DNA of 47,909 nucleotides from a virus: the IMG/VR virus record IMGVR_UViG_3300028569_001805, positions 1 through 47,909 of that record; one strand, 5' to 3'. Shown piece by piece: positions 514 to 41,353 of the stretch. Each line of letters starts with the position of its first letter. Positions within the stretch are counted from its first letter, which is position 1. Made by a program: the position numbers and the translations under genes. The notes beneath the pieces are model-generated. The model was not told the origin of the DNA and searched no databases. It was given only the letters and a program-made list of their open reading frames with translations.

Positions 514-3069
514 ATGTTGAATGGATTTTATACATGTATTGACCGAAAAATGAACAATCTGCTTTATCGTGGATATAACGATAAAGGACAAAAAGTTTAC
601 AACACTTACAAATTCCGCCCTACGGTTTATCTTGAAAGTAAGGATAAGAATGCCAAATGGAAAAGCTTGGACGGCATTCCTTTGGAACCTATGAGGTTTG
701 AAAGCATGAGTGAATGCCGAGCATTTTCCAAAAGTTATGAAGGTGTTGATTCGTTTAAAATTTATGGAAATGAACGGCATATTCCTTCTTTTATTCAAGC
801 TGAATTTCCAGACACAATCCAATTTGACAAAAGATTAATTGACATATGCTATTTGGATTTGGAATGCCCTAGTGGTGTTGATGGCGCCGAAGGCGGATTT
901 CCCAAACCGGATGAAGCCAAACACCCAATTGTCACCATAACAATTAAAAGCAGCAGAAGTGATACTTACATTGCTTGGGGTCTTAAAGATTATGATTGCA
1001 ACGCAAGTATTGTTCCGCATCTCAAAAAAGAATATCGGCAATTTGAAACTGAATCAGAAATGCTTGATGACTTTTTAAATTGGTGGAGCGACACATTAAA
1101 CACACCTGATATTATTACCGGTTGGAACACTCTTAACTTTGACATTCCATACTTGGTAAATCGAATTTCCCGCATATTAGGCAACGAGGATGTCAATCGA
1201 CTATCACCGTGGAAGCAAGTGGATCAAAAATCAAAAACTTTCCAAGGGCAAACAAATGTGTATTATGAAATATTTGGAATTCAACAACTTGATTATTTGG
1301 AATTGTTTAAAAAATTCACATTGAATACTTACGGTCAACAAGAAAGTTACAAATTGGATAATATTGCCGAACTTGTTCTTGGTGAAAATAAATTGGATTA
1401 TGGAGACTATAACAATCTTACAAAATTGTATGAACAAGATTTCCAACATTTCTTGGATTATAACATTAAGGACGTTGAACTTGTGGAACGACTTGAGACA
1501 AAACTGGGACTGTTAAATCTTGTATTTACTCTTTCATATTTTGCAGGTGTAAACTACACTGAAACATTAGGCACAGTTGCAATTTGGGATAGTATTATTT
1601 TCCGAAAATTGGCCAAACAACATATTGCGGTTCCACCAAGCACACCAAAAGGTGCTGTTGCATATCCAGGTGGATATGTTAAAAACCCAGCCGTTGGAAT
1701 GCACGAATGGATATTAAGTTTTGACCTTAACAGTCTTTATCCTTCGTTGATTATGCAATACAATATGAGCCCAGAAACATTGGTTCGGCATATGACAGTT
1801 CATGGTTTGGATGTTGATCGTATTCTTCAAGAAAAGAAAAATGTAAGTCCGGAACCTAATTTGGCCACGGCGGCCAACGGTGCGTGTTTCAGACGAGATA
1901 AACAAGGGTTTATGCCACAAATTGTTGAGGAGCTATATTCCAAACGTGTGCTTCTTAAAAAACAGATGATTGACAAAAAGAAAGAATTGGAAACAATTGA
2001 TGAACACAAAAATTCCAAATCATATTTTGCCGTTGCGTCCGCAGTTGATCGTCTTGAAACTGAACAAATGGCAATCAAAATTTTGCTGAACAGTTTGTAT
2101 GGTGCTATTGGTAACCGGTTTTTCCGATATTTTGACATTGCGGTAGCTGAAGGTATTACACTTACAGGTCAGCTTGTGATTAAATGGGCAGAGGAAAGCT
2201 TTAATAACCATTTGTCCAATTTCTTAAAAGATGAAAGCCCTAAGGATCGTGTTATTATGATGGACACCGATTCATGCTATATTTCAGTTAAGGATATTAT
2301 TGATAAGTTTAATCCTAAAAACCCAGTAATGTTTCTTGATGAATTTGCCAAAAAATCAATTGAACCTATGTTGGAAAAATCATTTGCCAAATTTGCCAAA
2401 CTGACAAATGCTTATGACAATAAAATGGTAATGAAACGCGAAAGCATTTCAAACCGTGGAATTGTAATTGCCAAAAAACGCTATATTATGAATGTTCATA
2501 ATAATGAAGGTGTTCAATATGCCGAACCTAAAATTAAAATGATGGGCGTTGAGGCAATTAAAAGTTCCACACCAAAAGTGTGCAGACAAGCATTCAAGGA
2601 AATATTCAAGGTAATTATGAACGAGGATGAATCGCGCATGCAGCAATCACTATCTTTGTTTAAAACATATTTTTCCAAACTTCCAGCTGAAACAATTGCA
2701 TCACCAAGAGGTGTCAGCAATATTAAAAAATGGAAAGATCGTCAAACAATCTATATTAAAGGAACTCCTATGAATTCCAGAGCTGCTCTTATGCACAATC
2801 ATCTTTGTGTGACAAAAGGTTTGCAACAACAATATCAACTTATTCAAGGTGGTGATAAAATCAAATACATACATTTGAAAAAACCAAATCCAACAAATGA
2901 AAATGTCATAGGGTTTATTGATAAACTTCCAGTTGAATTTGGTTTGAATGATTTTATTGATTATGATCTTCAATTTAAAAAAACTTTTGTTGAACCGTTA
3001 CAACTTATCCTAAACGCTATTGGTTGGAAACCTGAACCGGTTTCAAGTCTCGAGGATTTCTTTTGCTAA
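514..3069 (+). CDS. 43: Family-B replicative DNA polymerase (T4 gp43-like)
   Basis: An 851-aa DNA polymerase with 3'-5' exonuclease. Seen in order: ExoI DLE near residue 114 (YLDLECPS), ExoII TGWNTLNFDIPYL, ExoIII YNIKDVELV, polymerase motif A SFDLNSLYPS near 404, motif B KILLNSLYGAIGN, and motif C MDTDS near 584. Length is close to T4 gp43 (about 900 aa). An upstream in-frame extension to 475 is open, but ATG 514 is chosen because it gives an N-terminus like that of gp43 (FYTCIDRK...YRGY) and matches the promoter start. It copies the phage genome with the helicase, UvsX and ligase encoded downstream. The stop is 3 bases before the next ATG, suggesting co-transcription. Confidence 0.96.
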   Translation: MLNGFYTCIDRKMNNLLYRGYNDKGQKVYNTYKFRPTVYLESKDKNAKWKSLDGIPLEPMRFESMSECRAFSKSYEGVDSFKIYGNERHIPSFIQAEFPDTIQFDKRLIDICYLDLECPSGVDGAEGGFPKPDEAKHPIVTITIKSSRSDTYIAWGLKDYDCNASIVPHLKKEYRQFETESEMLDDFLNWWSDTLNTPDIITGWNTLNFDIPYLVNRISRILGNEDVNRLSPWKQVDQKSKTFQGQTNVYYEIFGIQQLDYLELFKKFTLNTYGQQESYKLDNIAELVLGENKLDYGDYNNLTKLYEQDFQHFLDYNIKDVELVERLETKLGLLNLVFTLSYFAGVNYTETLGTVAIWDSIIFRKLAKQHIAVPPSTPKGAVAYPGGYVKNPAVGMHEWILSFDLNSLYPSLIMQYNMSPETLVRHMTVHGLDVDRILQEKKNVSPEPNLATAANGACFRRDKQGFMPQIVEELYSKRVLLKKQMIDKKKELETIDEHKNSKSYFAVASAVDRLETEQMAIKILLNSLYGAIGNRFFRYFDIAVAEGITLTGQLVIKWAEESFNNHLSNFLKDESPKDRVIMMDTDSCYISVKDIIDKFNPKNPVMFLDEFAKKSIEPMLEKSFAKFAKLTNAYDNKMVMKRESISNRGIVIAKKRYIMNVHNNEGVQYAEPKIKMMGVEAIKSSTPKVCRQAFKEIFKVIMNEDESRMQQSLSLFKTYFSKLPAETIASPRGVSNIKKWKDRQTIYIKGTPMNSRAALMHNHLCVTKGLQQQYQLIQGGDKIKYIHLKKPNPTNENVIGFIDKLPVEFGLNDFIDYDLQFKKTFVEPLQLILNAIGWKPEPVSSLEDFFC

Positions 3070-3072
3070 AAT

Positions 3073-4014
3073 ATGAATTATTCGCTTACAATTTTTACCA
3101 GCATATATGATAACAAAACACATCGTAAGATGTCTTTTAAATCTTGGGATTCTTTTAAAAATTTGCTGTATGAATTAAGCGCACAACCAGGATACAAACC
3201 TAAAAAGCACGAAAAAAAGCACGGCAGTCCTCTTATAACACCTGCATCATTTTCGGAAAACACGACAAGAAAAAATGATAATGTATTGTCTTGGGGCGGT
3301 TGGGTTGCAATGGATGTAGACGAATACTCTGGAAGCTTTCAGCAGGCTGCAGCAGTATTCGATCCTTATGCTCATGTATGTTATTCCTCGGCAAGCAGCA
3401 CAGCGGAAAAAACAAAATTTCGTGTAATACTTCCAATGACACGCCATGTTGAAGCATCAAAAATTCGTCATTTATGGTATGCGTGCAATAAAGAATTTAA
3501 CAGTCTTGGTGATCCTCAAACTAAGGATTTATCTCGAATGTATTATGTTCCTGCTCAATATCCAAACAGCAATAATTTTATCTATAGCGGGTCAAGCGCA
3601 ACATTTCTCGACCCGGATGCTTTAATGTCGCGTCACCCTTATATTGCCAGCATTAAAGCATCTTCATTCTCTGATAAACTTCCCGATGAAATTCGCGAGA
3701 AGATTCTAAAATACAAAAGAGAAGGATTGTGCAATACCAATTTTAAATGGAACAGCTATGCCGATTGCCCGTTTGTTAATAAGAATATGATTAACGAATA
3801 CCGAACAATTCATAATGGAGGGTGGTATGCTAAAATGTACCAAATTATGCTGAATATTGCCAGTAATGCAATGCGGCGAGGTTACCCGATAACATCAAGC
3901 GAAGTTGCGTCTTTATGTAAACAAATTGATCTTGATACCGGCGGTTGGTATAAGAACAGACCTATGGAAGTTGAATCGGCAAGAGCCATAGAACGCGTGG
4001 CAAAAAGCTTATAA
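3073..4014 (+). CDS. Putative primase-like protein
   Basis: A 313-aa protein immediately after the polymerase gene. Residues 76-83 (GWVAMDVD) give a hydrophobic-DxD motif. CYSSASS and a conserved-looking FRVILPM strand follow, with a basic middle and an alpha-helical C-terminus. This resembles the D-h-D active site of archaeo-eukaryotic or RepB/VirE-N-type primases, and a primase would fit between polymerase and ligase. Primase identity is inference; it could be another replication accessory. No zinc finger or DnaG-type toprim motif is visible. Confidence 0.45.
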   Translation: MNYSLTIFTSIYDNKTHRKMSFKSWDSFKNLLYELSAQPGYKPKKHEKKHGSPLITPASFSENTTRKNDNVLSWGGWVAMDVDEYSGSFQQAAAVFDPYAHVCYSSASSTAEKTKFRVILPMTRHVEASKIRHLWYACNKEFNSLGDPQTKDLSRMYYVPAQYPNSNNFIYSGSSATFLDPDALMSRHPYIASIKASSFSDKLPDEIREKILKYKREGLCNTNFKWNSYADCPFVNKNMINEYRTIHNGGWYAKMYQIMLNIASNAMRRGYPITSSEVASLCKQIDLDTGGWYKNRPMEVESARAIERVAKSL

Positions 4015-4017
4015 ATA
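4010..4017 (+). promoter_or_regulatory. T4-type late promoter TATAAATA
   Basis: Exact TATAAATA, overlapping the stop of the primase-like gene, 7 bases before the ATG at 4025. Confidence 0.6.
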
Positions 4018-4024
4018 GGATATT

Positions 4025-4162
4025 ATGGCACGTTCAAAAAAGAAAAATAAAGAATTGGTTGATCAACCGATTCAAAGCAAAATTGTAGTTGAAGCTCCTG
4101 TGAGAAAAACAACTAAGGAAATTCAAGAAGCATTACTGCTAAGCTTAGCAAAACTATCTTAA
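4025..4162 (+). CDS. Small basic hypothetical protein (45 aa)
   Basis: A 45-aa ORF just after an exact late-promoter box. The N-terminus is very basic (ARSKKKNK) and the C-terminus is a short amphipathic helix (EIQEALLLSLAKLS). No family recognised. The promoter position makes it a likely late gene. Confidence 0.5.
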   Translation: MARSKKKNKELVDQPIQSKIVVEAPVRKTTKEIQEALLLSLAKLS

Positions 4163-4195
4163 AAGAGGTTTACTGTAATCTGAAAGCAATAAAGA

Positions 4196-4203
4196 TATAA
4201 ATA
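4196..4203 (+). promoter_or_regulatory. T4-type late promoter TATAAATA (no adjacent ATG)
   Basis: Exact TATAAATA about 65 bases before the small ORF at 4269. An early-type promoter follows 13 bases later, so the gene may be transcribed at both times. Confidence 0.4.
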
Positions 4204-4215
4204 ACAATACTATGG

Positions 4216-4244
4216 ACTACAACTGCTGATTTTTATAGTAGAAT
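4216..4244 (+). promoter_or_regulatory. Early-type promoter with TAGAAT -10
   Basis: ACTACA (4216-4221), 17 bases, TAGAAT (4239-4244), followed by the leader TCCTGTAAGGAAACACCAC. The same leader recurs after the promoters at 43072 and 46281, so this is a duplicated promoter-leader cassette with a diverged -35. Confidence 0.55.
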
Positions 4245-4268
4245 AGTCCTGTAAGGAAACACCACATT

Positions 4269-4421
4269 ATGAAAAAACTAAAAGCTGCTGAATTCGCCCG
4301 CCTCGTTAATGCCTTCTTCATGGACGGCAACACTCCGATCGGTCAGATGCGAGACGGATCCTAGGTTGTCCTCACCTCCGCCCAAGTCAAAGCCGTCAAG
4401 ACTTTGATGGGAGTGCGCTAA
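4269..4421 (+). pseudogene. 50-codon small ORF interrupted by an in-frame amber codon
   Basis: ATG 4269 opens a frame of 31 codons that meets TAG at 4362-4364. The same frame then stays open for 18 more codons (VVLTSAQVKAVKTLMGVR) to TAA 4419-4421. Both halves share unusually GC-rich codons (GCC, CTC, TCC, GTC) for this AT-rich phage, which suggests one gene of different origin that has gained a nonsense codon. It has its own promoter and leader. A suppressor tRNA is not evident in the tRNA array, so decay is the simpler reading; readthrough is possible. Confidence 0.5.
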
Positions 4422-4463
4422 TCCGAGACTTTGTTTCCCCTCCTTTTTCAAAAATTCTATATT

Positions 4464-5834
4464 ATGTACATCGTAAAATACTACCTTGTTGTTCCAGGCG
4501 CCGCCGTCCGAAACGGAACCGCCATGTCTGCTTCGCCCAAGCAAGCATACAGTCAAGCATGTAACAATGCTTATGAAGCTTTTGCTATGATTGGCAATTG
4601 TGAAAGCATCGGAGTTGGAGGTTATAGCATGTGGAAGGACGGCAAGCTTATTCACGACTATTGGACTATTGCGACATTTAATTCTAAAACCCAATTGATT
4701 AATAAAAATATGAAAACACTTCCTACTCTATATTCTCGCACATCAACCGGAGCTGTTCAGCAATGGACAATGGAAATTGATACCGCACTAGGTCTTTATC
4801 GTGCGTCTTATGGGCAAGTGGATGGCAAAATTATTACCACTGAATGGTCAACTGTTGTGGCTACAAATGTCGGTCGAGCAAATGAACGCGATCTTGTTGC
4901 TCAGGCGCAATTTCAGGCACAGGCGATCTGGAAGAAAAAGAAAGATTCTGGATACTTTGAGTCAATACAGGACATTGATAAACCAACTTTCGTCGAGCCA
5001 ATGTTGGCCAAAAAATGGGAAGACCGAAAAAGCAAGGTTGCATTTCCAGTATATTGCCAACCAAAATTGGACGGCATGCGCGCAATTATTACACGTCATG
5101 GCGCAACAAGTCGCAACGGTAAACCATGGGTAACCATTCCGCATATTTTACAAGCATTGGAACCGGTATTTGAGTCGCATCCAGATTTGATTCTTGACGG
5201 TGAATTGTATTGTCATGGACTGCATGATGACTTTAATAAGATCAGTTCACTTATTAAAAAGACCAAACCGACAGCAGAAGATCTTGAAGAAAGTGCAGCC
5301 ACAATCGAATATCATTGGTACGACATTGCAGACAACACATTAAAGTTTCTTGATCGCAACATGAAAATTGGAAGCATTTGCGCTGAATACAATTTTACTC
5401 CAAAGACTCCAGTTGTTCCTGTGGCAACATATGTGGCATGTGACGAAAGTAAGCTTGATGAACTTTACGGCATTCTTCTTGAAGATGCCTATGAAGGTCA
5501 AATGGTTCGCACCAACGAACCTTATGAATTCAAGCGCAGCAACACGTTGCTTAAGCGCAAGGAGTTTACAGATGATGAATATCTTATCGTGGAAATTTGC
5601 GAAGGCAATGGTAATAAAAGCGGAATGGCAGGTTATGCAACGTTGGAACGACCTGACGGTAAGCGATTCAGTTCCAATATTAAAGGGAATCATACATTCT
5701 TAAAAGAACTATTGCATGATGCAGATTCTTATAAAGGCAAATATGCTACATGCAAATACTTTAATCTTACTCCTGATGGAATTCCACGCTTTCCATATGT
5801 TGTTGGATTCCGAAACGGTCAGGGAATTGATTAA
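4464..5834 (+). CDS. ATP-dependent DNA ligase
   Basis: A 456-aa ligase that seals nicks during phage DNA replication. Motif I KLDGMR (Lys 201) carries the AMP. Motif III WYDI, motif IV EGQMVR and motif V LKRKEF follow, then a C-terminal OB-like domain. Residues 83-165 look like a WGR-like module (TSTGAVQQWTMEID). The first 80 residues are an extra domain not recognised from other ligases. ATG 4464 is chosen over TTG 4431, which would add 11 residues of unlikely sequence. T4 ligase gp30 is similar in size. Confidence 0.93.
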   Translation: MYIVKYYLVVPGAAVRNGTAMSASPKQAYSQACNNAYEAFAMIGNCESIGVGGYSMWKDGKLIHDYWTIATFNSKTQLINKNMKTLPTLYSRTSTGAVQQWTMEIDTALGLYRASYGQVDGKIITTEWSTVVATNVGRANERDLVAQAQFQAQAIWKKKKDSGYFESIQDIDKPTFVEPMLAKKWEDRKSKVAFPVYCQPKLDGMRAIITRHGATSRNGKPWVTIPHILQALEPVFESHPDLILDGELYCHGLHDDFNKISSLIKKTKPTAEDLEESAATIEYHWYDIADNTLKFLDRNMKIGSICAEYNFTPKTPVVPVATYVACDESKLDELYGILLEDAYEGQMVRTNEPYEFKRSNTLLKRKEFTDDEYLIVEICEGNGNKSGMAGYATLERPDGKRFSSNIKGNHTFLKELLHDADSYKGKYATCKYFNLTPDGIPRFPYVVGFRNGQGID

Positions 5835-9161: not shown

Positions 9162-10499
9162 ATGGACAATAATCTTGAAGATATTATAATAAAAAATTTA
9201 GTTCAAAATGAAATTTTTTGCAGAAAAGCATTACCACACTTAAAAACAGAATATTTTGAAGGCCATTACAAATCAGTATATGGTCTTATTTTAAGTTTTA
9301 TAAGCAAATATAATAAGCTTCCAAATTCAAATGTTCTTGACATTGAATTCCAAAATAGCGATTATGTGCATCGTAATGATCGCAATGAAGTTGCAAAATG
9401 TATTTCGGAAATTAATATTCCGTGCGAAGTTGAATTGGAATGGTTAATTGATAGCACCGAAAAATGGTGTAAAGATCGTGCTGTTCATCTTGCCGTAATG
9501 GAAGCGATTACCATTATTGACGGTAAAAGTAAAACCAAAGGTGAAGGACTTATTCCTGAGATTTTGGCCAAAGCATTAAGCGTGACATTTGATACAAACG
9601 TAGGTCACGATTATATTGCCAATGCGGAACAACGGTATGATTTTTATCATAAAACCGAAGATAAAATACCATTTGATTTGGATATGTTGAATGTTATTAC
9701 GGGCGGAGGAATTCCAAGAAAAACATTGAGTATGTTAATGTCCGGAACTGGTGGTGGTAAAAGTTTAACCATGTGTCATTTGGCCGCGGCAAACTTGGCC
9801 GAAGGAAGAAATGTGTTGTACATTACGATGGAAATGTCGGAGGAAAAAATATCCGAACGGATTGACGCTAATCTTCTTGATGTAAGAATTGATCAGTTGA
9901 AAGATTTATCTCGGTCATCATTTTCTTCAAAAATCAAAAATGTTGGTGATCGTACAAAAGGAACTCTTATTGTAAAGGAATATCCTACCGCAGCCGCACA
10001 TGTTGGTCACTTTCGCGCGTTGCTGTTGGAATTAAAGATGAAAAAGAAATTTGTTCCAGATGTCATTTATATTGATTACATTAATATTTGTGCCAGCAGT
10101 CGAATGAAAGGATTGGGAGGTTCGATTAATTCTTACTCACTAGTAAAATCAATTGCAGAGGAAGTCCGCGGATTGGCTGTTGAATTTAATGTGGCTATTT
10201 GGAGTGCAACACAAGTAAATCGAGATGGATATTGTTTAGATCCTTCTACTATAGTTGAAACTGAATATGGTAACAAATTTTTAAATGAAATTACTGTTGG
10301 TGATAAAATAAAAAGTAATACCGGCTTTAATGATGTTATTACCGTTTTCCCTAAGACTAAAAAGAAAGCATATCGTATTACAACTTCATCAGGAAAGACA
10401 ATTATTTGCAGTGCTGATCACAAATTTCCTGTCGGCGGCGTTGATAAATCAATTAATTCTGGTTTAAAAAATGGAGATTCTTTAGTGACATTGAATTAA
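9162..10499 (+). CDS. 41: Replicative DNA helicase N-terminal part fused to split-intein N-half
   Basis: A 445-aa product. Residues 1-357 are the N-extein of a DnaB/T4 gp41-type helicase: Walker A SGTGGGKS at 194-201, Walker B VIYIDYIN near 301-308, and the TQVNRDGY strand ending at the splice junction. Residues 358-445 are an 88-aa split-intein N-half that starts with Cys358. Trans-splicing with the product of the next ORF would give a helicase of about 467 aa (T4 gp41 is 475), the hexameric 5'-3' motor of the replication fork. The stop TAA (10497-10499) is followed by one sense codon and then ATG of the C-half in the same frame. Confidence 0.95.
   Translation: MDNNLEDIIIKNLVQNEIFCRKALPHLKTEYFEGHYKSVYGLILSFISKYNKLPNSNVLDIEFQNSDYVHRNDRNEVAKCISEINIPCEVELEWLIDSTEKWCKDRAVHLAVMEAITIIDGKSKTKGEGLIPEILAKALSVTFDTNVGHDYIANAEQRYDFYHKTEDKIPFDLDMLNVITGGGIPRKTLSMLMSGTGGGKSLTMCHLAAANLAEGRNVLYITMEMSEEKISERIDANLLDVRIDQLKDLSRSSFSSKIKNVGDRTKGTLIVKEYPTAAAHVGHFRALLLELKMKKKFVPDVIYIDYINICASSRMKGLGGSINSYSLVKSIAEEVRGLAVEFNVAIWSATQVNRDGYCLDPSTIVETEYGNKFLNEITVGDKIKSNTGFNDVITVFPKTKKKAYRITTSSGKTIICSADHKFPVGGVDKSINSGLKNGDSLVTLN
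10233..10496 (+). other. Split intein, N-terminal half (gp41-1 type)
   Basis: 88 residues: block A CLDPSTIVET with catalytic Cys1, then EITVGDKIKSNTG, and block B TIICSADHKFP with the conserved His. Length (88) and motifs match the gp41-1 split intein described in metagenomic phage helicases. No homing-endonuclease domain is present. Confidence 0.93.
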
Positions 10500-10502
10500 A
10501 AT

Positions 10503-10613
10503 ATGGAAGAAATAATTACGCAAATTGAGGAATTGGATTATGATATTGAAATGATTGATATTGAAGTAAATGGGAATCATTTATTTTTTGCCAATAATAT
10601 TCTAACACACAAT
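10503..10613 (+). other. Split intein, C-terminal half (gp41-1 type)
   Basis: 37 residues: block F IDIEVNGNHLFFANN and block G ILTHN, ending with the catalytic Asn and followed by Ser+1. The length of 37 equals that of the gp41-1 C-intein. Confidence 0.93.
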
Positions 10614-10946
10614 TCTAATAGTGATATTGATATTACAAATGTTTCCGAATCTATGGGTATTTCACATACAGTGGATTTATTCCTTGTTTTGATCAGTAAT
10701 GAAGCACTTGAAAAATCAAATCAAATTATGGTAAAACAGTTGAAAAATCGCTACAATGATCTTTCAAAACATAAAAGATTTACTGTTGGTGTGGATCGAA
10801 GTAAAATGAGGTTATATGATTTGGCTGATCCAATGGCTAATATTACGGTTGACAGCGGATCTCAAAGTTCAGCAGCAGCTCCAAGTCAATTTATGGCTGG
10901 TAAGACTTCGGTAAGAGCTAATAATTTTGGTGGATTTAAAGTATGA
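10503..10946 (+). CDS. 41: Split-intein C-half fused to helicase C-terminal part
   Basis: A 147-aa product. Residues 1-37 are the intein C-half; from Ser38 onward are 110 aa of helicase C-extein, with the DnaB-type strand NSDIDITNVSESMG, a VDLFLVL strand and KQLKNRYND before the basic GVDRSKMRLY region. Ser38 is the expected +1 nucleophile. The ATG has no visible Shine-Dalgarno and is 3 bases after the upstream stop, so translation probably depends on re-initiation. Confidence 0.95.
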   Translation: MEEIITQIEELDYDIEMIDIEVNGNHLFFANNILTHNSNSDIDITNVSESMGISHTVDLFLVLISNEALEKSNQIMVKQLKNRYNDLSKHKRFTVGVDRSKMRLYDLADPMANITVDSGSQSSAAAPSQFMAGKTSVRANNFGGFKV

Positions 10947-35782: not shown

Positions 35783-35915
35783 GTGAGTGAACATGATGGT
35801 GAAGCCCCGCTGCAACGGATCGGATCATCGTGAAGGTAATAGCATAATAGATGTGTGCCGGTCCAGCTGTGACCGGAGGAATTGGTGCAAATCCAATTTA
35901 CTTTTTGTCACTCAC
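35783..35915 (+). ncRNA. Multibranched structured RNA with 8-bp closing stem
   Basis: GTGAGTGA pairs perfectly with TCACTCAC (35908). Internal hairpins: CATGATG/CATCGTG, CCGGTC-CAGCTGT-GACCGG, and ATTGG-TGCAAAT-CCAAT. The last has the same loop as the T-arm of the tRNA-His at 42631. Confidence 0.5.
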
Positions 35916-35928
35916 AAGTATTTCAAAT

Positions 35929-36005
35929 CGCGAGTTAGACTGGAGGTGGTTCCAGCCAAGTTTCATAAGCTTAGGAGGTCGGTTCGATTCCGGCACTCGC
36001 AACCA
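35929..36005 (+). tRNA. tRNA-fMet-like (CAT)
   Basis: 77 nt. Acceptor CGCGAGT/ACTCGCA with a C1-A72 mismatch, the hallmark of bacterial initiator tRNA; loop TTCATAA; D-arm CTGG/CCAG; T-arm GTCGG-TTCGATT-CCGGC; CCA encoded. The three G-C pairs usual in initiator anticodon stems are not present. Confidence 0.85.
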
Positions 36006-36083
36006 ATTTCACACGGAAGCAGCATGCGGTGCATGAACCCACGGTATTGACAAGTCGGTGTCATATCGAGCATGGTAGTAAAT
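36006..36083 (+). ncRNA. Non-coding spacer RNA after tRNA-fMet
   Basis: No ORF or tRNA fold seen. It runs into the strong hairpin that follows. Confidence 0.3.
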
Positions 36084-36134
36084 CACGGGCTCGCTCATAT
36101 AATCCGAATATTATGAGCCCGTGTGTCCCTTTTC
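36084..36134 (+). terminator. Strong hairpin, probable terminator or processing signal
   Basis: CACGGGCTC (36084-36092) pairs perfectly with GAGCCCGTG (36115-36123) around an AT-rich inner hairpin, followed by CCCTTTT. Could attenuate transcription within the array. Confidence 0.55.
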
Positions 36135-36137
36135 ACA

Positions 36138-36326
36138 ATGATTCATACATTATACACTAAACACACTTATTGTGCAATGTATAATACATTAACGGAATAT
36201 AATAGTGATACCGTTACTAAAACTTTCACAATACAACGAGAGGTTGAAGTAAACCCGCGAAAGCGTAAGACCACCTTGATTGAAAGATCAGTTCATGTCA
36301 CGAATGGACGCCTCTCACATTTTTAA
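36138..36326 (+). ncRNA. Structured RNA with GNRA hairpin
   Basis: ATTATACA/TGTATAAT stem near 36148-36187, then GAGAGG (36239) with CCTCTC (36311) closing a domain that holds CGC-GAAA-GCG, a GNRA tetraloop. A 62-codon ORF occupies the same stretch but the paired structure makes an RNA role more likely. Confidence 0.4.
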
Positions 36327-36334
36327 TAATGTCA

Positions 36335-36409
36335 CCTCCTGTAGCTCAGTGGTAGAGGGGGTTCTTTATAAGGGCCGGGTCGTTGGATCATTCCCAACCA
36401 GGAGGACCA
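36335..36409 (+). tRNA. tRNA-Ile (TAT)
   Basis: 75 nt, acceptor CCTCCTG/CAGGAGG, anticodon loop TTTATAA, CCA encoded. T-loop is ATCATTC (A54 with T58 instead of T54 with A58). Reads AUA. Confidence 0.88.
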
Positions 36410-36413
36410 ATTT

Positions 36414-36487
36414 GCAACCGCACTCAGGAACAGTAGCGATGCTCTCAGTTTGGATTAAGTTCCAGTCTTCGGATTGCTGAGGTTGTA
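36414..36487 (+). ncRNA. tRNA-like element, no usable anticodon arm
   Basis: Acceptor-like GCAACCG/AGGTTGT (6 of 7 pairs) and T-arm CAGTC-TTCGGAT-TGCTG, with normal spacing between them (42 nt). The interior instead pairs GGAAC with GTTCC. No CCA. Degenerate tRNA or tRNA-mimic. Confidence 0.4.
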
Positions 36488-36516
36488 TGCTTGTTAAAGC
36501 TGTTTAAATTTTCAAA

Positions 36517-36601
36517 GCGGACGGAAAGCTGGTGGCTCCAGCAGTAAGACTGTAAATCTTATCTCTTCGGGGGAGTGGATCGAAACCACACGGCCGCACC
36601 A
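36517..36601 (+). tRNA. tRNA-Tyr (GTA)
   Basis: 85 nt, class II with variable arm CTCTTCGGGGGAG; anticodon stem TAAGA-CTGTAAA-TCTTA; T-loop ATCGAAA (A54); acceptor has one mismatch; CCA encoded. Confidence 0.9.
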
Positions 36602-36610
36602 ATTTTCTAT

Positions 36611-36687
36611 GATGCATTAGTGTAACGGGCTAACACACTTGACTTTCACTCAAGAGACTACGGGATCGTTCCCCGTATGCATCACCA
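36611..36687 (+). tRNA. tRNA-Glu (TTC)
   Basis: 77 nt, perfect acceptor GATGCAT/ATGCATC, anticodon arm CTTGA-CTTTCAC-TCAAG, T-arm ACGGG-ATCGTTC-CCCGT (A54/T58), CCA encoded. Confidence 0.92.
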
Positions 36688-36697
36688 ATTTTACAAT

Positions 36698-36770
36698 GCG
36701 CGTGAACGACGGGATTATATTTTACTCGTAATGTGAAATATGAAGGACTCAATTGCCTTCCGCCGCACCA
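36698..36770 (+). ncRNA. Degenerate tRNA-like element (possible Thr CGT or Tyr GTA loop)
   Basis: 73 nt ending GCACCA. T-arm AAGG/CCTT with loop CTCAATT. A 7-bp stem ATTTTAC/GTGAAAT carries loop TCGTAAT, which reads CGT if shifted by one. The acceptor 5' strand (GCGCGTG) pairs poorly with CCGCCGC. Likely non-functional or rearranged. Confidence 0.35.
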
Positions 36771-36774
36771 TTTT

Positions 36775-36874
36775 TAATACATAGTGTAATGGCAGCACGC
36801 CCCAAGCAAAGGGTTTCTTGTCCGATAGGATAGGCAAACATGCCGCAGTGACAGTTCAATTCTGTCTGTATTAT
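36775..36874 (+). ncRNA. tRNA-like element with extra hairpins in place of anticodon arm
   Basis: Perfect acceptor TAATACA/TGTATTA, a normal D-arm (TAGTGTAATGGCAGCAC) and T-arm GACAG-TTCAATT-CTGTC, but the middle holds TGTCC-GATA-GGATA and GGCA-AACA-TGCC hairpins and no anticodon loop. 3' end is TTCG, not CCA. Confidence 0.45.
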
Positions 36875-36883
36875 TCGATTTTC

Positions 36884-36957
36884 GCGTCATAAGTGTTACG
36901 GCAGCACATCTGACTTCCACTCAGAAAGCGTGGTTTCGACTACCACATGACGCACCA
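36884..36957 (+). tRNA. tRNA-Gly (TCC)
   Basis: 74 nt, acceptor GCGTCAT/ATGACGC, anticodon arm TCTGA-CTTCCAC-TCAGA, T-loop TTCGACT, CCA encoded. Confidence 0.94.
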
Positions 36958-36991
36958 ATTTCAAAACAAGTTGTTCACACCGAACAACAAC

Positions 36992-37067
36992 GGGGGTTTA
37001 GCTCATCTGGTAGAGCATCTGCTTTGCAAGCAGAGTGTGGTCGGTTCGAGCCCGGCAACCTCCACCA
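36992..37067 (+). tRNA. tRNA-Ala (TGC)
   Basis: 76 nt, acceptor GGGGGTT/AACCTCC, anticodon arm TCTGC-TTTGCAA-GCAGA, canonical T-loop, CCA encoded. A TTGTTC/GAACAA hairpin precedes it (36971-36987). Confidence 0.95.
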
Positions 37068-37074
37068 CTTTTAT

Positions 37075-37149
37075 ACCACAATAGCTCAGAGGCAGAGCAG
37101 ATTCTTCATACGGATCAGGTCGAGATTTCAAAATTCTCTTGTGGTACCA
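37075..37149 (+). tRNA. tRNA with CAT anticodon (elongator Met or Ile2)
   Basis: 75 nt, acceptor ACCACAA/TTGTGGT, anticodon arm GATTC-TTCATAC-GGATC, T-loop TTCAAAA, CCA encoded. Whether C34 becomes lysidine (Ile, AUA) cannot be told from sequence. Confidence 0.9.
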
Positions 37150-37155
37150 ATTTTT

Positions 37156-37309
37156 CAACACAGACGGTCTAGCTGTTGTAATTTACGAGACCAAAAGAAA
37201 GGGTGACTGCGAGTGCGGAAGTAAGTCTTTAAGACCTAAAACAAAACAATATCTCGACAAGACCGGATACTTGAACAAATTTCTACCTTTCAAACTTCAG
37301 CGCGTGTTG
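37156..37309 (+). ncRNA. Structured RNA unit closed by CAACAC/GTGTTG
   Basis: CAACAC (37156) pairs with GTGTTG (37304). Inside, GGTCT/AGACC and GTCTT/AAGAC hairpins. About 154 nt, no credible gene, lodged between tRNA-CAT and tRNA-Cys. Confidence 0.45.
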
Positions 37310-37320
37310 GAATTCTTTAT

Positions 37321-37395
37321 GCGCCGAATGGGGAATGGCCACCCGACAGATTGCAACCCTGTTATAAGTCAGTTCGATTCTGACTCGGCGCTCCA
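37321..37395 (+). tRNA. tRNA-Cys (GCA)
   Basis: 75 nt, acceptor GCGCCGA/TCGGCGC, anticodon GCA in loop TTGCAAC, T-arm GTCAG-TTCGATT-CTGAC, CCA encoded. Inner anticodon pair is A-C. Confidence 0.88.
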
Positions 37396-37404
37396 ATTTC
37401 TAAT

Positions 37405-37480
37405 GCCTCCTTAGCTCAACTGGCAGAGCAGCTCATTTGTAATGAGCAGGTTATCTGTTCAAATCAGATAGGGGGCTCCA
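37405..37480 (+). tRNA. tRNA-Thr (TGT)
   Basis: 76 nt, acceptor GCCTCCT/AGGGGGC, anticodon arm GCTCA-TTTGTAA-TGAGC, T-loop TTCAAAT, CCA encoded. Confidence 0.95.
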
Positions 37481-37490
37481 ATTTTCATAT

Positions 37491-37565
37491 GCGCTTCAAG
37501 CTTTAACAGTGAAGCACCTGGCTTTTAACCAGACTAACACGGGGCAGTACCGTGGAGGCGCACCA
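37491..37565 (+). tRNA. tRNA-Lys (TTT) with GG-type T-loop
   Basis: 75 nt, acceptor GCGCTTC/GAGGCGC, anticodon loop CTTTTAA, T-arm CACGG-GGCAGTA-CCGTG. The T-loop has G54 G55, and the D-loop (TAACAGTG) lacks the usual G18 G19. CCA encoded. Confidence 0.85.
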
Positions 37566-37574
37566 ATTTTCAAA

Positions 37575-37665
37575 TCCCATCGACGCGAGCAGGCGAACGC
37601 GCGTGACTGTTAATCACTGAACCGTGAAATTCGGGGGCTAGGATCGTTACCTAGGATGGGAGCCA
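37575..37665 (+). tRNA. tRNA-Asn (GTT) with long variable region
   Basis: 91 nt, acceptor TCCCATC/GATGGGA, anticodon loop CTGTTAA with GTGA/TCAC stem, T-arm CTAGG-ATCGTTA-CCTAG (A54/T58), CCA encoded. The variable region is about 20 nt with a CCG...CGG hairpin, unusual for Asn (class I). Confidence 0.85.
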
Positions 37666-37669
37666 ATTT

Positions 37670-37771
37670 TTCATGTCGTCTAAATAATAGGACCCTTTGT
37701 TGTAAAAAGGAAAGTGCAGGAGAATGGCCTGCCATGAAAGTTTTTCTTGCGCTCAATTGAGCTTCACGCTT
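37670..37771 (+). ncRNA. Structured RNA unit upstream of the Trp-like tRNA
   Basis: Hairpins GCAGG/CCTGC near 37716-37732 and CTTCACG (from 37762) with CGTGAAG (37779-37785). The second competes with the acceptor of the Trp-like element that follows. Confidence 0.35.
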
Positions 37772-37837
37772 GGCCCGTCGTGAAGTGATGAGCGGAACAT
37801 GTGGATTCCAAATCCATTTGATGTTAACGGGCCGCCA
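37772..37837 (+). tRNA. T-arm-less tRNA-Trp-like element (CCA)
   Basis: 66 nt. Acceptor GGCCCGT/ACGGGCC, discriminator G and CCA are intact, and GTGGA-TTCCAAA-TCCAT gives a CCA anticodon. Only nine bases separate the anticodon stem from the acceptor, so there is no T-arm. A complete tRNA-Trp exists at 41541, so this may be a relic or truncated form. Confidence 0.4.
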
Positions 37838-37844
37838 ATTTTCT

Positions 37845-38015
37845 GCGTCATAAGTACGAACTAATGGTACAGCACGGCATGTTGTACTCCACATGAAAGA
37901 AGCCTGCTGTCAGGTAAAAATCGTAAGCCATAAGTTGAAATGTCAATCAACAAGGGTGTCCCGGGTCCTTGAATCCGTTATCTCGTGTGCGTCGGAGGAA
38001 TTCCTGTGATGGCGT
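37845..38015 (+). ncRNA. Structured RNA unit closed by GCGTCAT/ATGGCGT
   Basis: A tRNA-Gly-like acceptor strand GCGTCAT (37845) pairs, with two wobbles, to ATGGCGT (38009). Inside: GTAC/GTAC, CAGCA/TGCTG enclosing CATGT/ACATG, TTGA-AATG-TCAA, and CAAGG/CCTTG. About 170 nt. Confidence 0.45.
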
Positions 38016-38055
38016 GCAACAATCTTCGGGTTGGCGAGAATCATAAATTTTTTTA

Positions 38056-38132
38056 CGGGACGTAGCTCAGCCTGGTAGAGCGCATGCTTTGGGAGCATGA
38101 TGTCGTCAGTTCGAATCTGGCCGTCCCGACCA
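38056..38132 (+). tRNA. tRNA-Pro (TGG)
   Basis: 77 nt, perfect acceptor CGGGACG/CGTCCCG, anticodon arm CATGC-TTTGGGA-GCATG, canonical T-loop, CCA encoded. Confidence 0.96.
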
Positions 38133-38136
38133 CTTT

Positions 38137-38358
38137 TGCGGTCATTGAGGGGTATTCGTCAACTAAGACGTTTGTGCAAGGTAGCCATAGGAAGACGCCA
38201 GTCGGCATATGGTAGAAATCGAGTCTTTCGAGACGTTATCAATTTCGGTTGGGAACACATTGCACGATATAGCGACCTGAGCCGCAAATTCATTTCCAAT
38301 TGCCTGATTGCAAGCGGCTATACCTGATAAAGTAGTGTGCAGCGGATTAGGCAATTGG
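38137..38358 (+). ncRNA. Large structured RNA with UUCG hairpin
   Basis: About 220 nt: closing TGCGG(TC) at 38137 with CCGCA at 38282; long-range GTGCAA/TTGCAC; CCATA/TATGG enclosing GCC-AGTC-GGC; GTCT-TTCG-AGAC (38223-38234), a UUCG tetraloop; and a separate 10-bp stem CCAATTGCCT/AGGCAATTGG (38296-38358). No ORF. The most convincing novel RNA in the array. Confidence 0.6.
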
Positions 38359-38370
38359 TCAATTTTCAAA

Positions 38371-38447
38371 CCTCGATTAGCTCAGCCTGGTAGAGCGCAC
38401 GCTTGATAAGCGTGAGGTCGTTGGATCGTGCCCAACATCGAGGACCA
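38371..38447 (+). tRNA. tRNA-Ile (GAT)
   Basis: 77 nt, acceptor CCTCGAT/ATCGAGG, anticodon arm CACGC-TTGATAA-GCGTG, T-loop ATCGTGC (A54/T58), CCA encoded. Confidence 0.93.
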
Positions 38448-38453
38448 ATTTAA

Positions 38454-38528
38454 GAGTTGTTAGTAGAATGGACAGCACGCTACGCTACGAACGTAGAGAT
38501 CCAGTTTCGATTACTGGGCGACTCACCA
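38454..38528 (+). tRNA. tRNA-Arg (ACG)
   Basis: 75 nt, acceptor GAGTTGT/GCGACTC, anticodon arm CTACG-CTACGAA-CGTAG, T-arm CCAGT-TTCGATT-ACTGG, CCA encoded. A34 would need editing to inosine. Confidence 0.92.
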
Positions 38529-38537
38529 TTTTTCAAT

Positions 38538-38611
38538 AGGGGATTAGCATAATGGTAGTGCTCTCGACTTTGACTCGAGATGTTTGTGTTCAACTCACAA
38601 ATCCCCCACCA
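38538..38611 (+). tRNA. tRNA-Gln (TTG)
   Basis: 74 nt, anticodon arm CTCGA-CTTTGAC-TCGAG, T-arm TTGTG-TTCAACT-CACAA, acceptor AGGGGAT/ATCCCCC with unpaired A1-C72, CCA encoded. Confidence 0.92.
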
Positions 38612-38619
38612 TTTTTAAT

Positions 38620-38694
38620 GCGCAATTAGCTCAGCGGTAGAGCCCCTGATTTACATTCAGATTGTCGGCAGTTCAAATCTGTCATTGCGTACCA
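38620..38694 (+). tRNA. tRNA-Val (TAC)
   Basis: 75 nt, acceptor GCGCAAT/ATTGCGT, anticodon arm CTGA-TTTACAT-TCAG, T-loop TTCAAAT, CCA encoded. Confidence 0.95.
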
Positions 38695-38730
38695 TTTTCT
38701 TATGCCTCGTTCGTTCTAATTCGAATCTTG

Positions 38731-38738
38731 TATAAATA
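38731..38738 (+). promoter_or_regulatory. T4-type late promoter TATAAATA
   Basis: Exact box 5 bases before ATG 38744 of the endonuclease gene; lets the inserted gene be expressed late. Confidence 0.7.
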
Positions 38739-38743
38739 ACTTT

Positions 38744-39646
38744 ATGCAAAATGAGATTCGAATTAGGAAATGTTCATTTTGTAGTATTGAAATTTCGAAT
38801 GAAACTAGAGGATCTATTGGAGACCACATACGGTGGTGCAAATCAAATCCAAACAGAAAACAGAGGAAAGAAAAAACATGTCTACGTTGTGGAATACTGT
38901 TTAATAGTAGAGGAAAACGATGTGTCGAATGTAAGAAATTTCCAATTGTTTTTTCCGCAGAAAGAAAAAATAATCTCTCAATAAAGAGAAAAGATTTTCT
39001 TAAGAAGAATCCGGATAAACACCCTTGGAAGAATAATTCTAAATTTATATCCGTTCCTTGTGAATATCTTAAAACCTATCTTAACTCAAAGGGGATATCA
39101 TTTGTTTCAGAATGGAGCCCACTGGAAGATAGAAATTTTTCAATAGATATATGTTTTCCCGATTTAAAATTTGGAATAGAGGTAAATGGAAATCAACATT
39201 ATAATAAGGATGGGACACTCGCCGAATATTATCAAAAACGACATGATTTAATCACCTCAGCCGGATGGACGTTAATTGAATTACATTATACTTCTGTGTA
39301 CAACCATGAACTCATTGATTCTGTAATAAAAATCGGAAAACAACCATCTTATGAAAAATATTTTGAAATATTAAGACTCAAAGCAGCTAAAGAAAAAAAA
39401 TTGGCGCCCGGAGAAAAAATACTATTAAGAGAAGCCATTAGATGGGAACCATATAAAGACTTGGTTTTAAATTCGGGTATAGATTTTTCGAAGTTTGGGT
39501 GGGTGAATAAAGTTTCAAAGCTGCTTGGTAAAAAACCACAGAATGTTTCAAAGTGGATGAAAAGATATTTACCTGAGTTTTATGAACTTAAATGTTTTAA
39601 AAGAAAATTTTCAGCAGGTGTATCGGAACTGTCTTCTAAGCAGTAG
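38744..39646 (+). CDS. Vsr-like (EDxHD) homing endonuclease with zinc fingers
   Basis: A 300-aa protein. The N-terminus has zinc-finger pairs (KCSFCS; DHIRWC; TCLRCG; RCVEC). The nuclease part is FSIDICFPDLKFGIEVNGNQHY followed by YYQKRHDLITSAGW, the E-x-N-G-x-Q-H and R-H pattern of very-short-patch-repair-like homing enzymes. The C-terminal part (KVSKLLGKKPQNVSKWMKRY) looks like a helix-turn-helix DNA reader. It has its own late promoter. Its last 11 codons lie inside the tRNA-Arg(TCT) gene, suggesting insertion into the array. This enzyme family was first noted beside split-intein (fractured) genes. Confidence 0.8.
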   Translation: MQNEIRIRKCSFCSIEISNETRGSIGDHIRWCKSNPNRKQRKEKTCLRCGILFNSRGKRCVECKKFPIVFSAERKNNLSIKRKDFLKKNPDKHPWKNNSKFISVPCEYLKTYLNSKGISFVSEWSPLEDRNFSIDICFPDLKFGIEVNGNQHYNKDGTLAEYYQKRHDLITSAGWTLIELHYTSVYNHELIDSVIKIGKQPSYEKYFEILRLKAAKEKKLAPGEKILLREAIRWEPYKDLVLNSGIDFSKFGWVNKVSKLLGKKPQNVSKWMKRYLPEFYELKCFKRKFSAGVSELSSKQ

Positions 39647-39691
39647 CACCGTAATGGAGCGATGGAGGTTCGAATCCTCTCACCTGCACCA
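39614..39691 (+). tRNA. tRNA-Arg (TCT) lacking a normal D-arm
   Basis: 78 nt. Acceptor GCAGGTG/CACCTGC, anticodon arm ACTGT-CTTCTAA-GCAGT and T-arm GGAGG-TTCGAAT-CCTCT are good; CCA encoded. Only 7 bases (TATCGGA) lie between acceptor and anticodon stem, while a 19-base variable region contains D-loop-like GTAATGG. The endonuclease stop codon lies in this tRNA. Confidence 0.7.
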
Positions 39692-39708
39692 TTTATTTGA
39701 TAAGATCT

Positions 39709-39734
39709 AGATTCAAATTCTCCCAGAGGCACCA
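39709..39734 (+). pseudogene. 3' fragment of a tRNA
   Basis: AGA-TTCAAAT-TCT then CCCAGAGGCACCA: a T-loop, half of a T-stem, an acceptor 3' strand and CCA. No matching 5' part upstream, though GCCTC at 38704 before the endonuclease could pair with GAGGC. Probable leftover of endonuclease insertion. Confidence 0.45.
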
Positions 39735-39738
39735 ATAC

Positions 39739-39814
39739 GCACATGTACTTTCAATGGCAGATGGGAACATTGTCAATGTTTCGGACGCGAGATCAGTACT
39801 CGCCATGTGCGCCA
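39739..39814 (+). tRNA. tRNA-Asp (GTC)
   Basis: 76 nt, acceptor GCACATG/CATGTGC, anticodon arm GAACA-TTGTCAA-TGTTT, T-arm GCGAG-ATCAGTA-CTCGC (A54), CCA encoded. Confidence 0.9.
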
Positions 39815-39832
39815 TTTTCAAAACAAAAAATG

Positions 39833-39840
39833 TATAAATA
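39833..39840 (+). promoter_or_regulatory. T4-type late promoter TATAAATA
   Basis: Exact box 9 bases before ATG 39850. Confidence 0.7.
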
Positions 39841-39849
39841 ACAATACAT

Positions 39850-40311
39850 ATGAATATTATTAAAACAAACGATGAAACGTATATTGCCGCAAAAGCAATT
39901 TTGGGAGGACAAATTGTTGAAGCAAATGGTGAATTTCCTTTTGCCGCAGGCAATACTCCTTGGACTAAAAAAGGAGCACATAATTATGATAACTTTTTGG
40001 CCTCAAACGAAGATCGAATTGGTAAGCCAATGATTGACGGTGGTCTTAAAGCAACCGATAAAAATGCCACATCCATTAATGGTCAACTTAATGACGATGT
40101 AATTTATTGCGGTAGCGGATGCGTTGCATACATGCGAGGCGATACAAAGGTTTTCATTAAACTTCCATCGGGTCTTATTAACACAAGCGATGGAACATTG
40201 CCATGGTCAGAATATCGTAGTTATGATTCAGAAGGTGTCTTTGTTAAAGGTAAAACTTCTGCGGAATTTAAAGCTTATGCTGCCGCACTTGCGGTTGGCG
40301 CAAAAGTATAA
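39850..40311 (+). CDS. Hypothetical late protein (153 aa)
   Basis: A 153-aa protein embedded in the tRNA array, with its own late promoter. It is Gly-rich in the middle (IDGGLKATDKNATSING; YCGSGCVAYMRGD) and has an early DETYIAAKAI. It lacks nuclease motifs, so it is not an obvious homing enzyme. No family recognised. Confidence 0.65.
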   Translation: MNIIKTNDETYIAAKAILGGQIVEANGEFPFAAGNTPWTKKGAHNYDNFLASNEDRIGKPMIDGGLKATDKNATSINGQLNDDVIYCGSGCVAYMRGDTKVFIKLPSGLINTSDGTLPWSEYRSYDSEGVFVKGKTSAEFKAYAAALAVGAKV

Positions 40312-40321
40312 CATTTTCCAT

Positions 40322-40396
40322 GCACGCATAGCTCAATGGAAGAGCGTCTGTCTTCGAAACAGAATGTTGGAGGTTCGAGTCCTTCTGTGTGCGCCA
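40322..40396 (+). tRNA. tRNA-Arg (TCG)
   Basis: 75 nt, acceptor GCACGCA/TGTGTGC, anticodon arm TCTGT-CTTCGAA-ACAGA, T-loop TTCGAGT, CCA encoded. Confidence 0.93.
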
Positions 40397-40398
40397 TT

Positions 40399-40431
40399 GC
40401 CTTCGTAGCCCAACGGTAGAGGCGCCGTAAA
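40399..40431 (+). pseudogene. 5' half of a split tRNA
   Basis: GCCTTCG acceptor strand, then D-arm TAGCCCAACGGTAGAGGC and CCGT. The sequence stops here and tRNA-Leu(TAG) begins. The matching 3' half is at 41264-41293, whose acceptor strand CGAAGGT pairs with GCCTTCG over all seven positions. Confidence 0.6.
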
Positions 40432-40513
40432 GCCCCGATGATGGAATGCAGACATGATAGTCTTAGAAACTGTTGTTCGGAAGAACGTCCGAGTTCAAGT
40501 CTCGGTCGGGGTA
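40432..40513 (+). tRNA. tRNA-Leu (TAG)
   Basis: 82 nt without CCA. Class II: acceptor GCCCCGA/TCGGGGT, anticodon arm ATAGT-CTTAGAA-ACTGT, variable arm GTTCGGAAGAAC, T-arm CCGAG-TTCAAGT-CTCGG. The 3' end reads ATTA, so CCA must be added by host enzyme. Confidence 0.92.
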
Positions 40514-40529
40514 TTAATTTAGATTCTAT

Positions 40530-40537
40530 TATAAATA
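40530..40537 (+). promoter_or_regulatory. T4-type late promoter TATAAATA
   Basis: Exact box 4 bases before ATG 40542. Confidence 0.7.
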
Positions 40538-40541
40538 AAAT

Positions 40542-41256
40542 ATGGACATTTTATGTGAACATGGTTGTGGCAACTTAGCACTTTTTAAGACTATTAAAGT
40601 TGGTAAAAATATATGTTCTAAATCATCCAACAGTTGTCCTGTTATTAGGAAAAGAAATAGCGATGCGCTTCTTTTAAAGAATAAAGATCCTGGATATTTA
40701 GAAAACAGGAAAAACATGAGAAAAAATTATTCATCTGAAACTAGAAAAATGATGGGATGGTCTGCAGGAATAACGAAACATGATGATCCTCGTTTAGAAA
40801 GACCAACATTGGTTGGAAAAAAATTTGGGGCATCATTAAACGGTCATTCTGTGGAATCAAAACGAAAATTATCTAAGGCCCGAATTGAATATTTAGAACG
40901 ATCACCACATATAAAATGGTATACTCTTTCCAATGGTCTTAAAGTTCAAGGAACTTGGGAAGCCCAAGTAGGTGAAAAAATTGATCGAACTTGGGTATAC
41001 CATATCTCGGGAAAGACTTAAGTTTGATGAGCATAGGTGCTATACACCGGATTTTAAAGTTTCCGATCATACATATATCGAAGTTAAAGGTTGGTTATCA
41101 GATCGTGATAAAAACAAATATAGATTAGTAAAAAAAGACAATCCAAATTTAAAAATATTTCTAATCAGAAATGAAAATGGAATTAATAATTTCACAAAAT
41201 TTATTTCGGGACAGATAAAATTGGAAGATGTCGAAGATCTTTATTCCATAATTTAA
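40542..41256 (+). pseudogene. Homing endonuclease gene broken by one frameshift
   Basis: Frame 1 (40542-41021) encodes a zinc-finger N-terminus (LCEHGCGNLA; ICSKSSNSC), an HNH/NUMOD-like middle (GHSVESKRKLSKAR) and KVQGTWEAQVGEK, then drifts to a stop. The following frame (40972-41256) continues LIELGYTISRERLKFDEHR, then YTPDFKVSDHTYIEVKGW, the D and E-x-K of a PD-(D/E)XK nuclease. The change of frame lies at an A6 run near 40976-40981; removing one A joins them into about 237 aa. Real mutation, programmed shift or homopolymer read error are all possible. Inserted between two halves of a tRNA. Confidence 0.8.
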
Positions 41257-41263
41257 ATTAAAA

Positions 41264-41293
41264 CGGTGTGTTCGAATCACACCGAAGGTACCA
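41264..41293 (+). pseudogene. 3' half of a split tRNA
   Basis: T-arm GTGTG-TTCGAAT-CACAC, acceptor strand CGAAGGT, discriminator A and CCA. Pairs with the 5' half at 40399. ACGG just before the T-arm can pair with CCGT of the 5' half, so the break lies in the anticodon arm. Confidence 0.6.
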
Positions 41294-41304
41294 TTTTATA
41301 CAAT

Positions 41305-41353
41305 GCAGGTCCGCAAGGATAACCAAGGGTTGGGATCCCGGCCGCCTGTTCCA
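41305..41353 (+). pseudogene. Short tRNA relic
   Basis: 49 nt: GCAGG pairs with CCTGT before TCCA, and GTTGG-GATC-CCGGC looks like a damaged T-arm. D and anticodon arms are missing. Confidence 0.4.

What the first reader, a model, noticed from the sequence alone, without database searches (positions are those of the whole stretch)
10233..10613. gp41-1-type split intein with halves in the same frame, parted by one stop codon and one sense codon
The helicase gene is interrupted by an 88-aa N-intein and a 37-aa C-intein. The stop TAA at 10497-10499 is followed by AAT and then ATG, all in one frame. Known fractured genes of this family usually have the halves far apart or with an endonuclease gene between them. 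Here the break is almost minimal, so it may be a newly split intein, or one where an endonuclease was lost cleanly. Readthrough of TAA would give a contiguous mini-intein. Translation of the C-half must re-initiate next to the stop with no visible ribosome binding site.
Basis: partly seen in the sequence, partly recalled or inferred. Interest (0 to 1): 0.9.

Follow-up and report, generated by a model that had tools for sequence, protein, structure and literature searches.

The report
Split intein with endonuclease cleanly lost
In this virus of bacteria, a DNA-copying enzyme is made as two proteins that a known kind of self-cutting protein tag (a gp41-1-type split intein) should join, and comparison with relatives suggests that the selfish DNA-cutting gene that usually sits between the two parts was deleted almost without trace.

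Summary
The gp41-type helicase gene of a T4-like phage is broken by an 88-aa N-intein (10233-10496, stop 10497-10499) and a 37-aa C-intein (10503-10613), with only AAT between. Both halves match the gp41-1 intein, whose published halves are 88 and 37 aa. The joined model fits solved gp41-1 (TM-score 0.95, rmsd 1.0 A), the expected catalytic residues are present, and the spliced exteins align without a gap to an unbroken helicase.

The break is not new. Stop and start lie at the positions usual among 57 related loci. Six contigs of the nearest relative (intein 89-95% identical) have the same halves with a 685-nt HNH homing-endonuclease insert, bordered by an imperfect direct repeat (GAAYTAAMACAT). 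Recombination across it reproduces the window's junction. Other relatives show less clean endonuclease deletions. Loss of the endonuclease is thus the best reading; never having had it is the main rival.

No unusual translation is required: Shine-Dalgarno motifs are not enriched in this phage, a third of same-strand neighbours lie -4 to +5 nt apart, TAA is its usual stop, and no UAA-suppressor tRNA was found. Splicing was not tested. A new variant (smallest natural gap found) of a known kind.

The parts
9162..10232 (+). N-extein: N-terminal part of T4 gp41-type replicative helicase (357 aa)
   Evidence: PHROG 19 DnaB-like helicase, E=7.2e-92; Pfam DnaB_C; joined exteins align without a gap at the splice point to the unbroken helicase of phage C48C1, 247 identities
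10233..10496 (+). N-intein, 88 aa, gp41-1 type (Cys1; SxxH block B)
   Evidence: 6qaz E=2.5e-21; Pfam Intein_splicing E=8.7e-5, below its gathering score; 89% identical to L001-L005, 88% to L006
10497..10499 (+). stop codon TAA of the N-half, at the family's usual split position
   Evidence: 22 aa after HxFP, as in 40 of 57 related loci; homologous stop in L001
10500..10502 (+). whole gap between the halves (AAT); aligned to AAC near the 3' end of the HNH gene in L001
10493..10504 (+). inferred deletion junction GAATTAAAATAT, counterpart of the imperfect direct repeat GAACTAACACAT / GAATTAAAACAT that borders the HNH insert in L001 (5057 and 5739)
   Evidence: 10 of 12 bases match between the two L001 copies; only place of 677 in the insert with such a match; breakpoint alignment
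10503..10613 (+). C-intein, 37 aa, own ATG, ends in Thr-His-Asn
   Evidence: 6qaz E=2e-9; 95% identical to L001 C-intein; M to DIEV 18 aa as in the family
10614..10946 (+). C-extein: C-terminal part of the helicase (110 aa + stop), starts with Ser+1
   Evidence: ORF 10503-10946 hits PHROG 19 at profile positions 511-588, directly following the 159-510 matched by the N-half

Best explanation
The locus is a gp41-1-type naturally split intein in a phage replicative helicase, in which the homing-endonuclease gene that formerly parted the halves has been deleted. Two proteins are made from neighbouring ORFs (N-extein-IntN and IntC-C-extein); the halves should associate, splice in trans and yield a 467-aa helicase. 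The ancestor most likely had an HNH/NUMOD3 endonuclease gene between the halves, overlapping the C-half start by 8-14 nt as in its relatives. A deletion between short direct repeats bordering the insert removed it and left the two ORFs one codon apart. The C-half is then translated like other tightly packed genes of this phage, by ribosomes that finish the N-half and restart 3 nt downstream or by ordinary SD-less initiation. Shown: sequence, homology, catalytic residues, predicted fold, occupied relatives, junction repeats. Inferred: trans-splicing activity, direction of the change, translation mode.
For: Both halves match gp41-1. The AlphaFold2 model of the joined halves has mean pLDDT 92.7 and matches 6qaz at TM 0.95, rmsd 1.0 A, 52% identity. 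Six contigs with N-inteins 88-89% identical have the same halves with a 685-nt gap holding an HNH_3+NUMOD3 gene. The junction is explained by an imperfect 12-nt direct repeat at both edges of the HNH insert. In the intein tree the window is sister to L001/L006 (100/99), with all seven HNH-bearing rows and the window in one set of eight (81/84); the endonuclease-less state needs at least 6 separate changes over the tree. HNH genes at the same place in L007, L022, L030, L092 and L136 are homologous (48-69% identical in the first 95 aa over all pairs) and all overlap the C-half ATG by 8-14 nt. L029 against L030 is an observed clean case: flanks match perfectly outside a deletion between short repeats inside the HNH gene. 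Endonuclease-like remnants persist in the gaps of L085, L093, L076, L146 and L156.
Against: Polarity is not proved. Parsimony would tie if the window/L001 pair were basal among the HNH-bearing inteins. The L001 HNH is only 26-36% identical to the others beyond residue 95, the HNH tree is unresolved, and the extein tree does not group all HNH carriers. The same direct repeat could be a duplication made on insertion. Higher synonymous identity of the intein than of flanking genes, which would fit recent homing, is only a modest excess once codon composition is allowed for. No splicing or translation data exist.
Confidence: 0.75

Rival explanations
1. The window keeps the state before endonuclease invasion: a split intein with adjacent halves, into which the HNH gene inserted later in the L001 lineage, duplicating about 12 nt at its borders.
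For: The direct repeat at the edges of the L001 insert would also fit a duplication on insertion. A published review notes a comparable uncertainty for split gene 43 of Aeromonas phages, where an endonuclease may have entered an already split gene (PMC2988022).
Against: HNH genes of the same family sit at the same place with the same kind of 3' overlap in five other inteins of the same intein set; deletion is directly seen elsewhere (L029/L030).
Confidence: 0.2
2. Readthrough of TAA gives a contiguous precursor that splices in cis, alone or beside trans-splicing.
For: Halves are in one frame with a single stop; the readthrough product is predicted to fold as gp41-1; L164 shows a naturally contiguous mini-intein at another gp41 site.
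Against: No UAA-suppressor tRNA among 24 tRNAs; TAA ends 37 of 55 ORFs, so it is not reassigned; the C-half keeps an ATG at the family position; same frame has a one-in-three chance; no unusual RNA structure at the junction (z=-0.36).
Confidence: 0.05
3. A contiguous mini-intein was freshly split by a point mutation to TAA.
For: Minimal gap and one frame.
Against: The nearest relative is split at the same two codons with an insert between; N- and C-half ends match the typical ends of the family; among 85 distinct paired loci only L164, at a different gp41 site, is contiguous.
Confidence: 0.03

Closest known systems
gp41-1 split intein (PDB 6qaz/6riz; 88 + 37 aa)
   Same: Insertion site in gp41 helicase (..GY | S..), half lengths 88 and 37, fold (TM 0.95) and catalytic residues (half lengths from PMC7229206)
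   Different: About half of the residues differ; here no gene lies between the halves, whereas the gp41-1-like loci fetched here (N-half starting CLDLKTQV) have 234-1600 nt, mostly with a GIY-YIG-like gene
Fractured-gene arrangement (Dassa et al. 2009, doi 10.1093/nar/gkp095; not held in the library, known to me from memory and from citing papers)
   Same: Essential phage gene broken at an intein site with a split intein
   Different: The free-standing endonuclease gene between the halves is absent
L001-L006 loci (IMG/VR, e.g. IMGVR_UViG_3300042397_002782)
   Same: N-intein 88-89% and C-intein 95% identical, same site, same stop and start
   Different: 685-nt gap with an HNH_3/NUMOD3 gene between the halves
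L029 (IMGVR_UViG_3300006108_000064) against L030 (IMGVR_UViG_3300006127_000069)
   Same: Same type of event: endonuclease deleted between halves of a gp41-1-site split intein
   Different: 89 nt with HNH debris remain, out of frame
L091, second intein (IMGVR_UViG_3300005512_003673)
   Same: Near-minimal in-frame gap, 6 nt after TAA
   Different: Different insertion site 12 aa downstream; C-half has an N-terminal extension

Membership tests
gp41-1-type split intein | Sequence match of both halves to gp41-1 | tested here: met
   E=2.5e-21 and 2e-9
gp41-1-type split intein | Same insertion site in gp41 helicase | tested here: met
   NRDGY|C..N|SNSD aligned with other loci of this site
gp41-1-type split intein | Catalytic residues: Cys1, block-B His, penultimate His, terminal Asn, +1 Ser | tested here: met
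gp41-1-type split intein | Hedgehog/intein fold of the combined halves | tested here: met
   pLDDT 92.7; TM 0.95 to 6qaz, predicted on the joined sequence with TAA read as Gln
gp41-1-type split intein | Trans-splicing activity | not testable with these tools
   needs co-expression
Fractured gene (Dassa 2009) | Gene broken at an intein site with each extein part fused to one intein half | tested here: met
Fractured gene (Dassa 2009) | Free-standing endonuclease gene between the halves | tested here: not met
   gap is AAT; present in nearest relative
Contiguous mini-intein | One uninterrupted reading frame | tested here: not met
   TAA at 10497-10499; no suppressor tRNA found

The most novel reading that the evidence does not exclude
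The locus is a natural intermediate on a route from split back to contiguous intein: the endonuclease is gone, the halves are in frame and one substitution in the stop would fuse them, and low-level readthrough may already give some cis-spliced helicase.
Probability: 0.12. Interest if true: 0.65.

Novelty: new variant of a known kind. Interest (0 to 1): 0.45.

Why it matters
Whether fractured phage genes need their endonuclease, and whether the split or the endonuclease came first, are open questions. A pair of close loci with and without the HNH gene, plus several other endonuclease-less lineages, suggests that a split intein can outlast its endonuclease and stay split even when its halves are back side by side. 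That makes split-intein persistence testable: compare the window's locus with a fused version for helicase output. It also gives a compact natural two-gene cassette for trans-splicing.

Tried and rejected
Genome-contig scan for N-intein relatives found none. Exact-pattern scan for the window's junction gave four matches, none encoding an intein. Rfam search of 9.0-12.5 kb and RNA folding of the junction found nothing unusual. The synonymous-identity test for recent intein transfer was only suggestive after the codon-composition control. Two joint alignments of N- and C-halves misplaced the short halves, so the fold used N-half rows plus the L001 C-half. One Pfam call on wrong coordinates failed and was repeated. 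The founding fractured-genes paper is not held. Considered and rejected: sequencing error for the stop; TAA reassignment; mis-assembly across the repeat (my judgement: a 12-nt imperfect repeat is too short to collapse an assembly, and the window differs from L001 by 26-31% in the nearby N-extein DNA).

Full report
What is there. The helicase ORF begins at 9162 and runs into an 88-aa N-intein at 10233, stopping at TAA 10497-10499. One codon (AAT) later an ATG at 10503 opens a 37-aa C-intein followed by the rest of the helicase, to the stop at 10944-10946. The two ORFs hit consecutive parts of the phage DnaB-like helicase profile (PHROG 19, positions 159-510 and 511-588). The exteins joined at the predicted splice point align without a gap at that point to the unbroken helicase of phage C48C1, 247 identities (53%), which also lies just downstream of uvsX as here. 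The window is a 47.9-kb virus record whose UvsX is nearest to those of phage C48C1, Acidovorax phage ACP17 and Stenotrophomonas phages.

Identity. Each half separately matches the solved gp41-1 intein. The published half lengths of gp41-1 are 88 and 37 aa (PMC7229206), the same as here. A model of the joined halves (TAA read as Gln only for this purpose) has mean pLDDT 92.7 and pTM 0.84 and matches gp41-1 at TM 0.95 and rmsd 1.0 A. Cys1, the SxxH motif, the penultimate His, the terminal Asn and Ser+1 are present.

Relatives. Scans of viral contigs gave 85 distinct paired loci. Six contigs (L001-L006) have N-inteins 88-89% identical, and L001's C-intein is 95% identical, at the same site with the same stop and start, but with 685 nt between, holding a 225-aa HNH_3/NUMOD3 protein. 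Others carry HNH or GIY-YIG genes at this site and larger Vsr-like ORFs at other gp41 sites; the HNH class rests on Pfam hits for two of them, the rest of the classing on sequence motifs that I read by eye or by pattern. The window's 3-nt gap is the smallest of all; the next, 6 nt, is at a different site in L091.

Not a new break. The N-half ends 22 aa after HxFP in the window as in 40 of 57 loci at this site, and the C-half ATG lies 18 aa before DIEV in the window, 17-18 in nearly all. The nearest relative is split at the same codons. The stop is therefore the family's ordinary break, not a fresh mutation or a read error.

Loss of the endonuclease. In L001 the HNH insert is bordered by GAACTAACACAT and GAATTAAAACAT, 10 of 12 bases alike, the only such match in 677 places of the insert. 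Crossing over between them gives TTGAAYTAAAAYATGGAAGA, which is the window's junction; on this reading the AAT codon, and perhaps the TAA itself, derive from the 3' end of the HNH gene. In the intein tree the window is sister to L001/L006 within a set that otherwise carries HNH genes (support 81/84), and endonuclease-less loci need at least six separate changes. The HNH genes of the set share a conserved first 95 aa and an 8-14-nt overlap with the C-half start. L029 against L030 shows the same kind of event: flanks identical, deletion between short repeats, 89 nt left. GIY-YIG-like or Vsr-like debris is readable in the gaps of L085, L093, L076, L146 and L156. The weak points are the unresolved HNH tree, the extein tree that does not group all HNH carriers, and the fact that an insertion with duplication would leave the same repeat.

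Translation. In this phage 7 of 55 ORF starts have a 4-base SD motif, no more than random sequence, and 16 of 47 same-strand neighbours lie between -4 and +5 nt apart (ORFs were picked mechanically by longest non-overlap, from the first ATG). The C-half start is ordinary here. TAA ends 37 of those 55 ORFs, and none of 24 tRNAs reads UAA. Readthrough is possible but nothing points to it.

Verdict. A real, well-formed gp41-1-type split intein, notable as the smallest natural gap found and as one half of a with/without-endonuclease pair. The family, site and mechanism are known; the endonuclease-free, one-codon state is a new variant. That no such locus was described before was checked only in open-licence papers, and the founding paper could not be read.

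Noticed in passing
L091 (IMGVR_UViG_3300005512_003673) and L087 (IMGVR_UViG_3300000116_008562): The helicase gene is broken by two split inteins. In L091 they are 12 aa apart, so the middle piece is C-intein, 12-aa extein (SSSDPELTDTSE), N-intein: a helicase to be assembled from three proteins.
   Followed up: partly
L015 (ON528746.1, Shigella phage ESh36), 1882-4862: A cultured-phage (Tequatrovirus, record marked UNVERIFIED) gp41 helicase broken by a split intein with a Vsr-like ORF between; the record annotates only two 'DNA primase/helicase' genes and a hypothetical protein.
   Followed up: partly
L164 (IMGVR_UViG_3300047325_000097), 2981-4816: A contiguous mini-intein at a third gp41 site (ASQLNR|C), at which L152 and L163 have split inteins.
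   Followed up: partly
L091, L087, L148, L150, L156, L015: C-halves at the downstream gp41 site carry an N-terminal extension of some tens of residues before the intein core, of unknown use.
   Followed up: no
window 35832-47141: 24 tRNA genes in about 11 kb, with few anticodon duplicates.
   Followed up: no
L046 and identical loci, 234-nt gap: The gap between gp41-1-like halves holds a 75-aa ORF (MCKLYFKVSGENFDEI...) in place of an endonuclease.
   Followed up: no
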